Positions 45,774 to 51,700 of a DNA stretch of 64,000 nt are shown one piece after another. The notes under the pieces are model-generated. The model saw only the letters and a program-made list of their open reading frames with translations, did no database searches and was not told where the DNA came from. Source of the stretch: Apteryx mantelli (taxonomy: Eukaryota; Chordata; Aves; Apterygiformes; Apterygidae); assembly GCF_036417845.1 (NCBI RefSeq), contig NC_089980.1, positions 55,798,501 through 55,862,500 of the forward strand, given 5' to 3'. Within the stretch, counting starts at the first letter, position 1. Every line of letters starts with the position of its first letter. Both the position numbers and the translations under genes were made by a program.

Positions 45774-48700
45774 CTGCAAAAGAAAAAAGAACAAATTTAT
45801 CCATTCCAGATCACAGAAACCATGTGAGAAATACATGCATAGGAAATCACACAAATCTGTTAAAGCCTGCATTACCAAACCACACATAAAATTAACGCTC
45901 TATTTTCATCTTCCAGACACACAAAGGATTCTACATTATGTTTCAATGTTCCATGCTGAACTGATGGATGCAATACAGCATTTACAAAGAGATGACTGTG
46001 ATAAAAGTTTTGTTCTATTTTTTACAAATGTTTTGTTTCATTCACTTTCTATGAAAGTCCAAAGATCAGAGTTTTAGACCAGAACTATTCTAATCACATA
46101 TCTGGTAATAAACAGTGTTTTCTCTAAAGACACTTAAAAATATAAGAACGATAATAATGACATATATAACAGCTGCATTCTCTCTCACACACATTCTGTA
46201 CACATTGTATACTAATAAAGAAGCAAAAATGTACCTCTAATTGCCTGAGAGTTTGATGTCAAGACAAATACTTTTATAAGCATGAGGCACAAAGGCGCGT
46301 AGTCATGTTCCCAAATAACAGCTGGAATTAGCAAAAGCTTTCCATAGCTAGACAACAGCAGTGCTTTGAGAAGTAAAATGAAGTCAGACTTCTTCTTCAG
46401 CATCTCAGGTCTCATCTGCCATAAGGCAATAAAAATGCCCACTATAAATGAAGTTTGTTCTAAGAGGAAATAAAGAGGAGTTGGAAAGAGAGAATGAAGC
46501 ACAAACATCAAGTCCTTTTGTGATCAATCTCAGTGAAATGACAGGTCCCAAATGCAACTGAGCCACTGCTATTTAAAAGACATTTTATAAGCAAACATGA
46601 ACAACATGTCCTCCATCTCCCATTTTCACTTTAATAGGCAAAAATTACTATCACTTATTTAATCTAATTCAGTATAACTCCATTCAAAATAATTCAATCA
46701 ATTCTATCTGTAGGATGGTTGTGCTTGTAATACCTGACACCATACAGCATAGGAAATTTAGCATATGAAACTCTTCACTTTTCCTTTTTAACAAAGGAAG
46801 AATTTTTTCAACTGGCTGTTAGCCTGTAAAACAAGATCATCAATACTTGTCTTTTTTGAAAGGCCAGTAACAATAAACCCTTTCCATCCAGCACAAGGAA
46901 GAACACTAAGGCGAAAACTTCATTGAGCTATTAGACTTTCTCCAACACCTCATCCCTGCGTAACACTGGAACTAATGCCGATTGTCAGAGCAACTCTCAC
47001 AACAACCGTAAGAGATGAATTACTACTGAAAAATGAGCTCCAACATTTTTACTGACCTGTTATGAAAACCTACTAAAGAGAAACATTAGACAATAGATGA
47101 CTGAAGTTAAACTCTGAATATCTAAGGGAAACATTTACAGTTTTAGTCTGCGTGCCTGATTTAAACAGTATCACCAGAAGAAAAAAAACTGAGAATAAAA
47201 GTCTTAACTAAAATAAAACAAAAACCCTCACCAACCTTCGTAGTTACTCTTACAGCTTAGAAATATTTACTGTTTACCAGTGATAACACTGTTCTGTTTG
47301 ACAAATACTGATTATTGCAAATTCATTTTAAACAGATAGAGCTTTTCCTGATCACTGTTTGCTTCTGCAAGGATCATCCTTAATGTTGTCTCATTTTTAT
47401 AAGTCATAAACTTTGGAGCAAATCCAAAGAAATTTATGGTTTTGGTTTCACTTAGAGCTAAAAAAAAAAAGGTAATTGGTCACATTCAAATAGTAGTCTT
47501 TCATTTTTCAATACATTTCAAGCAAACTTCCTAAGAGAATATATCATCTCCCCACATTTTCTAACGGTCTTAAGATAAGACAGGTAAGAGAACACTGACA
47601 GGATCCTTTTAAACAGATTACTTTTAGAAAGAGGCACTTATAAATAGCATATTCTATTTTGCAGAAGACAACTGGCATTAAAGTATCATGCCAGATAATG
47701 AGACATAAAGCAAATTGCAGAGAATGTTTGTTAACTTGTGCTTGAATCAATTATCTTACATTAAAATGCAGTAGAATATGTAGAGTTTTAGTCTTTGGAA
47801 TAAGGCAGAGCTCTACATTGGTCTTTAAGCTATGTAAATGCATTCAGACTAAGATTTCTGAATATTGCCATCTTCTGGTGATTTGATATCTAATGTTGAT
47901 TATACCAGTCTAAATTGCAGTCAGGTGATTTAAATATAAATTTGCTTTAAATGAAGGCAAGTGAGAGAGTATGTGAAAAATCATTTAACCATGCTGGGTT
48001 GAACATGACAACCATTCTGTATTAATAATTTTTGCAATATGAGGCTGTTGAAAGATTCATCCAGTTATAAAATGCTTAAAGAGTACACTTGATAGTTATA
48101 TGAAATAATCATAGTTCTTACCTAAAGAAGCTATGCCAAACATTCTATAAAAATCCCATTCCTTGGCATATCTGATTAAGTCATCAGGATCTGTATTTTG
48201 GCTTGAATCCTGTAGCTGCAGCCACCTGAGATAAGCCTCACAGAGCAAACAGAATATGCAGAGCTTTCCTTGAATCTGGTAAATGAAAGAAAAATAAATG
48301 CATTAGTATCAAATGTTTAATTTAAAATACCTTTTGACATCTCTACACAAACAAGCTCTGCTTATCATTTTAGGCATGTTTAGAAATGTAAGCAAATTAC
48401 TTTTGTTGAGCCACTAATTTAGCACATCTTCCTTTTAGCATCAATTAGTTCACTTACATGACAGGCAAATTAGAGGGTGTTGAAAACTGCATGAACCGTT
48501 CTGTACCGAAGAAAGTATGTAATTGTAGTTTGCAAGGTCTTCTCTATACTTTTTAAAATTGGGACAGCTGTTTCAGTTAGGAATATAAAAACAAAATCAT
48601 GTCCTAGCTAGCAGAACTATACTATCAAAAGATTCAGTATAATGACATCTACTCCATTCAGAGAACTGTTTTAAGTTGCCTTGTTTTTGTTTTTCCCTGA

Positions 48701-51700
48701 GAAAAATTGTTTCTCCATTAGAAGAAACTGGCAGTGTAGTTCTACCGAAAACATCCCTTAGTTCAGAGAAGGGTGAGGAAACAACAGTAAAGAGAGCAAT
48801 GCAACCAAACAAAAGTTAAATCATCCTCTGAAGTAACTGCAACAAGAGGTGCTATGAAGGTCCACATTTAGCATATTTCCATATTAAACATAACTTATAA
48901 GCCAATGAAAGTGGCTTCTGTCTAGAATTTTTTCTGTTGGAGACTAGTTATGCAGATTTCACTTGCAGGGACAAGTATACCTGCACAAGCTAAGCTAAGT
49001 TTAAAAATCAAATTCATTTATTTGAATAGGTGAAATTTCCACAGATGGAAATGTTCTTCCAGAGGCCTCATGGAAAGCATCATTACCTGTTTCCAGCAGC
49101 ATTTAATTCATTAAAAACCTTTAGCCAGATCTATGCTTGAAAGATATGCAACTACAGGATTCAAGCCAAAATATGGATCCTGATGACTTAATCAGATATG
49201 CCATTGTAAGCAATGTAGATCTATCTACACTGCTTACCTTGGACTGGTCAAGAGATAAAAATATGTAGACAGCATACACTGATGCTTGGATAGTTTACTG
49301 TAGATTAGCTTCCCTCTCCAGGGAAATAAACTGTTAAAGTAAAAATAATGTAACTCTGTGAGAATAGCTACCTCTGCACTTCAGTAGGTCAGAGGCAAGC
49401 TGCCCATGGGACTCTGCATCTCATGAGGAAATTCATTAGAAAGTAGCAGAGTAGGTTTAATTAGTATAGCATTGTTAGTATGGTACATTATACTACTATA
49501 GTTCATTTCAAAAATAACTACTTCCATCAGAAATTTAAGGTGGAAATGAATTTGAAATTAGACCTTTCTCTTCCAAAAAGTCCAGTTAGGACTATCTGTA
49601 ACATGTAGTGAAGACAGCTGTATTTGCCAGTGTTACAGAGACAGTACTTTCTTAGTAATAGCTAGAATTTGAGATGAAATCTCAAATGTGCTCTATTTAC
49701 CATATTTGACCCTTAATCTGCCTGAGGAAAAAAACCTGTGGTATGGCTTGCTGGGGCAGGAAAAGAACAGCACCTAAATTTTGTAACTATTCCAATCAAC
49801 TTATCAAACCTAAATATATCTTTAACTAAAAAGCCACATGGTAGGGGCAGAGCAACTTACATTTATCTTTGCATTGAAAAGAATGTGTCTGTATGCTTGC
49901 GCTTTACATAAAATAGCATTAATCAAGATGATAACAGGATCATACTCAATGTATTTGTCCACAGGTTTCTGGCAGGATTTCTGAAAGTCACAAAATAATA
50001 AGAATTAAAAAAAAGGAAGCACAAGCTGATGAAATGTTCCTCTTAGTTTAGCACAATCACATAATTCCAAGTAGACATTCAATTCATATTACTCTTTCCC
50101 TAATGTAGTCTTTATTTTCAATGCATTTTTAATCCAGCCAGAAAAAATGCCTTATTTCCCCTTGACACTGCAGTTTAAACAAGGATTTCCCTTATGAACC
50201 AGAAAGATACATTACTGATATTTATAGACTTCAAATTAACACAGAACAATAAACTATGCAAGGATGTACGTAGTTACCATTTTGTGCCCTACAGATGCAA
50301 AAAAAACAAATTGCCTTTGAAATACTCAAGAACCACACCAATAGGTTGTTGAAGGTTAATTGATTATGCTTCTCTATACGGTGGGGTTTTTTTTGAAAGA
50401 AAATGGATTTCTATTATATATATCCTTCTTTTACAAGAGATGCTTTATACAAGAGATGCTTTATACAAGAGATGCTTTATACAAGAGATGCTTTATACAA
50501 GAGATGCTTTTTTTCCTCCTTTTGGGAAAAGGTAAGTATTTTTTCCTGTTGCATTGTCCTTGCATACAAGTTAGTAGCCCAGACATTTCTATTCACTTGC
50601 AATTATTAAACAAATACCCTCCCCACTCCCAGCCCATAACATATATTTGGAATATTGAAAACATAGCTTTCACACTAGAGATGTAGCTAAAGAATCAGCA
50701 GTTGCTACTGAATGGTGTGGTAAGACATTAGGGAATTACTTCTCTAATACATCTGCTGGTTCCGGCTGTGCCAGCTAGACAGGTTATTTCCCCAAGTGCA
50801 CTGGGAATTGCTTGTCACCATCCCCTTCAGATTTATTGACCTACCTGCATGGCTGGGCACTCAAGTCAAATGAGAAGGGCTTAAAACAGCTATTATTTTA
50901 ACTGTTTAAGTGAAGAGAACGTTTAAATAACAGTCTTACAAAGAGCTCAACCAACAGCCCTGAGGGGGAAATAAATAACTTCTACTGGAGAACTTCTCTC
51001 ATAGAGAAGCACGAGCAGTTGACCACAACAACCACCTCAGCTCACACAACTGCACTTGCAGAAGGACGCCTGCCTGCAGGTCGGCTTTCTCCTGCTACCA
51101 AACTTCTGCTGCTTCTTCTCTCTGACCTGTCCTGAGCTATTGCCACCTCTCTTGCTTTCATATTAGCTCCATACTTAGAGTACAAAAGCCACAGAAACTA
51201 CCTGCGTTTCCATTTTAATGAGGGCACTGCTGTACACTGACAGAACAGAAAACTCTGCCCAGTCGCTTCTGAAATACTCTGCCTGGCACAGTCGGAGCAC
51301 ATGGAAGAGTAGACAAGGCATATCTACGGCAAACTCGCAGGAAAGAACAAAAAGTTTCTTCAGTTCAATAGGGATTCCTCATGGCCAAAGTTAATGTTGC
51401 TTTGATATTTATCAGAATTACTATCGGAGAATTTGAGAATGCAAAAATTCACCATAAGAACAAATATGCATCGTAATATTAGTTGAATAGAGTCTATAAG
51501 GAACACGGATACCACTAGTCAGTGCTTCTTGGTCCAGTTCAGGAAAATCAAAAACACAGCTCATTTGGATCAGAAAAGAAAGCGCTATATATGATGACTC
51601 AATTAACCAAAAGTTTGATAGGTCTAAAATTAAAGTCAGAGAGATGGAAAAAAGGATATAATTAAATGAAGACCATAGCTACAGTGTTTAACAGAGTGAA

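What the first reader, a model, noticed from the sequence alone, without database searches (positions are those of the whole stretch)
48164..49203. ARV1 intron 2 carries an inverted copy of part of its own exon 3
49147-49203 matches the sense strand of exon 3 (48164-48220) at 54 of 57 positions but lies in opposite orientation about 0.93 kb away, inside the preceding intron. In the pre-mRNA the two can form a 57-bp stem with 54 Watson-Crick pairs, one G.U and two A.C mismatches. That could mask exon 3 (skipping), attract ADAR editing or promote back-splicing. The abrupt ends inside the exon, the short length and the inversion fit a replication template-switch event rather than retroposition. 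Functional effect is inference; the inverted match is directly visible.
Basis: partly seen in the sequence, partly recalled or inferred. Interest (0 to 1): 0.75.

Follow-up and report, generated by a model that had tools for sequence, protein, structure and literature searches.

The report
Inverted exon scrap in bird intron
A 57-letter piece of a coding exon of the bird gene ARV1 was copied backwards into the intron beside it, most likely by a slip during DNA copying; it could make the gene's raw RNA fold onto itself, but such scraps are an ordinary kind of mutation and no effect is shown.

Summary
Confirmed: window 49147-49203 (ARV1 intron 2, minus-strand gene) matches the sense strand of exon 3 (48164-48220) at 54 of 57 positions, inverted, 926 nt apart. 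The segment has two places in the 1.5-Gb assembly. Best explanation: a templated insertion by replication template switching (FoSTeS/MMBIR type). Support: a 9-of-10 direct repeat, AGATATGCAA/AGATATGCCA, at both junctions; TGCA shared at entry; a stable 32-nt quasi-palindrome starting 2 nt beyond the right junction. The empty site is untested: no related bird is held. One difference adjoins the junction and two are adjacent, so 5% divergence is a poor clock. The predicted RNA stem is strong (-96 kcal/mol; 55 of 57 pairs in two long folds), but predicted splice-site pairing is the same when the intronic arm is shuffled. ADAR editing of exon 3 is the most plausible untested effect; back-splicing is poorly motivated. 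One other unique inverted pair, older looking, turned up in 20 control stretches. Verdict: real, a new member of a known mutation class, probably near-neutral.

The parts
48122..48275 (-). ARV1 exon 3 (154 nt; length is 1 mod 3, so skipping would shift the frame)
   Evidence: splice borders and translation [51 protein letters not shown]; Pfam PF04161 hit of the open frame that holds it
48164..48220 (-). source segment inside exon 3 (exon nt 56-112)
48276..49860 (-). ARV1 intron 2 (1,585 nt); a query of 48280-49850 finds itself and the exon 3 segment only
49147..49203 (+). inverted copy of the exon 3 segment, 54 of 57 identical
49142..49151 (+). left junction repeat AGATATGCAA, including TGCA shared with exon 3 at the entry point
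49194..49203 (+). right junction repeat AGATATGCCA (last 10 nt of the copy, exon-derived)
49206..49237 (.). quasi-palindrome (hairpin) starting 2 nt beyond the right junction
   Evidence: DNA fold of 49196-49247 at -11.3 (plus) and -12.4 (minus) kcal/mol, z -5.0 and -5.5
49861..49980 (-). ARV1 exon 2 (120 nt)

Best explanation
It is a micro-scale templated insertion from replication template switching. A nascent plus strand stalled just before the hairpin-forming stretch now at 49206-49237. Its 3' end (...AGATATGCA or ...GCAA) paired through TGCA with the plus strand of exon 3 about 0.93 kb behind, either on its own strand (snap-back) or on the other arm of the fork. It copied some 52-57 nt in reverse, so ending in AGATATGC again, and that end re-annealed to the original AGATATGC before synthesis went on. 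The net result is about 52 extra bases, read in the transcript as an antisense exon 3 piece inside intron 2. Shown: the inverted copy, junction repeats, hairpin and two-place uniqueness. Inferred: the event, its polarity, and that the intron once lacked the segment. In RNA the pieces can pair (predicted), but the default reading is near-neutral.
For: 54 of 57 match with abrupt ends inside the exon. The segment has 2 places and the intron 1 place in the assembly at E up to 0.001, so no repeat family explains it. AGATATGCNA has only two plus-strand places in the window, exactly at the two junctions. Against 20,000 random placements in the window, a shared 8-mer across the junctions has P 0.0165 and two shared 8-mers P 0.0065; a tighter first test (50,000 placements) gave P 0.0037 for the 7 nt it saw. 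The hairpin is the only one in the window with 14-nt arms, at most 1 mismatch and loop at most 8; 5 such loci occur in 261,362 bases, the other 4 being AT- or CA-rich simple sequence. Published signature: inverted insertion near its template, flanked by microhomology; in 103 chromosome 1 events, in the section on cancer cells, 80% of junctions had 2-12 bp, mean 3.7 bp, or 5.1 bp with mismatches allowed (PMC8421209, passages). Hairpins might stall forks (PMC2621351, passages).
Against: No orthologous intron from another bird could be read, so insertion (against replacement or deletion) is not shown. Junction tests were chosen after seeing the data and are modest. A second shared 8-mer, AGATCTAT at 49127 and 49217, would allow another insertion boundary. 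With 12-nt arms 41 hairpin loci occur in 261,362 bases, 12 of them in the window, so closeness to one is then less striking.
Confidence: 0.78

Rival explanations
1. Double-strand break repair by polymerase theta (synthesis-dependent microhomology-mediated end joining): a resected 3' end snapped back on exon 3, copied it, and joined the other end by AGATATGC.
For: Predicts the same inverted templated insert and junction microhomology. Pol theta does templated extension in cis and in trans (PMC4912351, start of abstract in the listing).
Against: An insert of about 52 nt and a template 0.9 kb away seem long for this pathway (recalled, not tested). The hairpin beside the junction has no special role.
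Confidence: 0.14
2. Retroposed fragment of ARV1 mRNA inserted antisense into the gene's own intron.
For: The source is wholly exonic, so no intron was there to keep.
Against: The copy lies inside one exon, with no exon-exon junction and no adjoining A-run. The 8-nt junction repeat lies inside the exon-derived sequence, so it is not a target-site duplication. The Arv1 Pfam model rings at two places, both in this gene, and the segment has two places. Landing 0.93 kb from the source would be a coincidence.
Confidence: 0.03
3. Assembly or library artefact.
For: No reads could be examined.
Against: Three differences, intact flanks and a short internal piece do not look like a fold-back misassembly (inference).
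Confidence: 0.02
4. A selected regulatory duplex: the intronic antisense arm is kept because it controls splicing or editing of exon 3 (a claim about function, compatible with the origin above).
For: Strong predicted pairing: -96.1 kcal/mol against a mean of -15.0 (sd 3.8, lowest -24.2) for 500 other intron 57-mers; 55 of 57 pairs in the MFE of 1,161 and 1,901 nt.
Against: Pairing follows automatically from the copying event. Conservation is untestable here. Splice-site pairing is unchanged by the arm. Skipping would shift the frame. [quoted passage not shown]
Confidence: 0.03

Closest known systems
MMBIR-linked templated insertions (MMB-TI; PMC8421209, passages seen)
   Same: Short inverted copy of nearby DNA with microhomology at the junctions; 103 and 99 germline events of at least 25 bp reported in two people.
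Short-range template switch mutations, four-point model (PMC7954356, passages seen)
   Same: Reverse-complement copying from a nearby template, with atypical secondary structure near the switch point.
   Different: Longer range than their 100-nt limit; their detection compares with an ancestral sequence, absent here.
Exon-intron ADAR substrates with an intronic editing complementary sequence, such as GluA2 and GluK2 Q/R (PMC5654063, passages seen)
   Same: Architecture: coding exon paired with intron, partner up to 1,885 nt away.
   Different: No editing shown; arm upstream rather than downstream; a near-perfect 57-bp duplex would predict promiscuous rather than site-selective editing (inference).
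Conserved complementary regions in human pre-mRNAs (PMC8052449, passages seen)
   Same: Long-range pairing in pre-mRNA; stable pairs are rich in editing sites.
   Different: Those are conserved and tend to lie within introns; here one arm is exonic and conservation is unknown.

Membership tests
Template-switch (FoSTeS/MMBIR) templated insertion | insert is a reverse complement of nearby DNA | tested here: met
   54 of 57, 926 nt apart
Template-switch (FoSTeS/MMBIR) templated insertion | microhomology at entry and exit junctions | tested here: met
   TGCA at entry, AGATATGC (9 of 10 over 10 nt) at exit; P 0.0037 to 0.0165 by placement tests made after seeing the data
Template-switch (FoSTeS/MMBIR) templated insertion | ancestral empty site known | not testable with these tools
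   the assembly has no relatives here
Template-switch (FoSTeS/MMBIR) templated insertion | possible fork-stalling structure near the switch point (associated, not required) | tested here: met
   hairpin 49206-49237; that it stalls forks is inference
Processed retrocopy | spans exon junction, poly(A), target-site duplication outside the copied sequence | tested here: not met
   copy internal to one exon; no A-run adjoining; 8-nt repeat lies inside the copy
Dispersed transposable element | many copies in the genome | tested here: not met
   two places, E up to 0.001; the search skips very common words
ADAR exon-intron editing substrate | stable exon-intron duplex | tested here: met
   predicted only
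ADAR exon-intron editing substrate | A-to-G changes in cDNA | not testable with these tools
   no RNA data held
circRNA-promoting inverted repeats | complementary arms in the two introns flanking the exon (definition recalled) | tested here: not met
   one arm of this pair lies inside the exon; other intron pairs were not sought as such

The most novel reading that the evidence does not exclude
A single copying slip created, in one step, a working exon-intron editing duplex: ADAR edits exon 3 of ARV1 in this bird. Of 21 exon adenosines in the arm, 15 would change the amino acid if edited and 6 would be silent; the one A.C-mismatched exon adenosine (48192, a setting that ADAR favours, recalled) would be silent. 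This would be a datable birth of a recoding substrate.
Probability: 0.08. Interest if true: 0.65.

Novelty: new member of a known kind. Interest (0 to 1): 0.3.

Why it matters
It is a clean, readable example of a mid-range (about 1 kb) inverted templated insertion whose template is a coding exon, with a candidate stalling hairpin still in place. If the RNA duplex acts, it would show how an exon-intron editing or splicing structure can arise in one mutation.

Tried and rejected
Retroposition: disfavoured for lack of exon junction, adjoining A-run and outside target-site duplication. Dispersed repeat: rejected by whole-genome search. Paralogue or pseudogene as source: the Pfam Arv1 model rings at two places, both in this window (exons 2 and 4); exon 3 itself was not called, so that search has limited sensitivity. 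Target-site duplication reading of the 8-nt repeats: AGATATGC lies inside the exon-derived copy; AGATCTAT (49127, 49217) remains a possible alternative boundary, its right copy lying in the hairpin. Back-splicing: one arm is exonic. Dating: 3 of 57 gives 5.3% (exact 95% interval 1.1-14.6%), but one difference adjoins the entry junction and two are adjacent (P 0.10 for at least one adjacent pair among three random positions), so independent later substitutions may number zero to three. The first duplex control was flawed, since random 57-mers could overlap the copy itself (lowest -91.6); it was repeated without overlap. The first hairpin scan counted N runs; it was repeated. One search was translated in a wrong frame; two searches gave the right one.

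Paper searches (listed of found): 25 of 58, 20 of 119, 9 of 9, 12 of 56, 10 of 12, 12 of 49, 10 of 69, 2 of 2, 8 of 16, 1 of 1. In these listings I saw no title or abstract start about an inverted copy of ARV1 exon 3, or about exons copied inverted into their own preceding intron. Most subscription papers are not in the library and supplements were not searched.

Full report
What was claimed and checked. The pair is real: arms 48164-48220 and 49147-49203, 57 nt, 54 matches, 926 nt between. Of 18 pairs in the self-BLAST of the 64-kb window, 16 belong to or adjoin one dispersed repeat, one is this pair, and one is a palindrome beside it. In the 1,504,198,195-base assembly the segment has two places, these two, at E up to 0.001; the search skips very common words, so this is evidence against a repeat rather than proof.

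The gene. Three translated window stretches holding exons 2, 3 and 4 hit Pfam PF04161 (Arv1) above cut-off. Exon 3 is 48122-48275 on the minus strand, 154 nt, so skipping shifts the frame; intron 2 is 1,585 nt. The assembly's alpha-A globin, leaving engineered fused chains aside, scores best with alpha-A entries that I recall as avian.

How it arose. The plus strand at the left edge reads AGATATGCAA (49142-49151) and the copy ends with AGATATGCCA (49194-49203); AGATATGCNA has no other plus-strand place in the window. At the left edge TGCA is shared between intron and exon. Two nt beyond the right edge begins a 32-nt quasi-palindrome; the 52 nt around it fold as DNA at -11.3 and -12.4 kcal/mol on the two strands, z -5.0 and -5.5, while 52 nt at the exon edge give z 0.9. 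By a strict definition it is the only one in the window, and the other four in 261,362 bases are simple sequence; by a looser one there are 41, 12 of them in the window. The polarity is coherent: a nascent plus strand meets the hairpin just after AGATATGC, its end pairs with exon 3 through TGCA, copies backwards to AGATATGC, and returns. This last part is inference. Chance tests for the junction repeats give P between 0.004 and 0.017 and were chosen after seeing the data. A second shared 8-mer, AGATCTAT, leaves the exact boundary open.

Age. 3 of 57 differences (5.3%, interval 1.1-14.6%). One lies directly at the entry junction and may be ancestral flank; the other two are adjacent (exon CA, copy TG). 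The copy could therefore be quite young.

What it may do. In RNA the arms are predicted to pair at -96.1 kcal/mol, against -15.0 (sd 3.8, lowest -24.2) for 500 other intron 57-mers; 55 of 57 pairs appear in the MFE of 1,161 and 1,901 nt, with mean pair probability 0.957 in the former. Against the mean of 15 versions with the arm shuffled, pairing of the exon arm rises from 0.62 to 0.96, while acceptor (0.57, 0.57) and donor (0.46, 0.44) hardly change. So exon-internal signals could be hidden, but the splice sites are not. ADAR editing has precedent for exon-intron duplexes, with the GluK2 partner 1,885 nt away (PMC5654063, passages), and stable complementary regions are rich in editing sites, though in that catalogue pairs crossing intron borders are depleted (PMC8052449, passages). 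Of 21 adenosines in the exon arm 15 are nonsynonymous if edited. No effect on RNA is shown.

How common. In 20 stretches of 10 kb from contig C1 (2 of the 20 hold N runs) plus the window, 8 pairs of at least 50 bits and at most 10 kb apart were found. Four of them have at most four hits in the sample: this one; an inverted pair in L014 (155 aligned nt, 79%); a perfect 55-nt tandem copy in L020; and an overlapping tandem array in L004. The L014 segment also has only two places in the genome. Local unique inverted copies are thus not very rare (one in about 197 kb of control sequence, a single and older-looking case), and this one is unusual mainly because its template is a coding exon.

Verdict. 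Real; best read as a replication template-switch insertion of the MMBIR/FoSTeS kind, similar to germline templated insertions reported in humans (PMC8421209, passages). Probably near-neutral. The missing test is the empty site in related birds.

Noticed in passing
window 49206-49237: Strong quasi-palindrome, GTAAGCAATGTAGAT/ATCTACACTGCTTAC with a 2-nt centre, immediately beside the insertion; may be the stalling site or part of a compound event.
   Followed up: partly
L014 730-884 and 2065-2203 (G000:C1:33000730-33002203): A second, older-looking unique inverted pair, 155 aligned nt at 79%, about 1.2 kb apart; only two places in the genome.
   Followed up: partly
L020 4851-4960: Perfect 55-nt tandem duplication, likely recent.
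   Followed up: no
window 50428-50510: 16-bp tandem repeat, 5.2 copies, 98% matches, unit CTTTATACAAGAGATG, upstream of ARV1 exon 2.
   Followed up: no
window 2031-2554: 259-nt head-to-tail duplication (93%) within a dispersed repeat (CR1-like, recalled); relatives at 34413-34640, 54281-54413 and 62813-62947.
   Followed up: no
window 49127-49134 and 49217-49224: 8-mer AGATCTAT on both sides of the copy, an alternative boundary repeat.
   Followed up: partly
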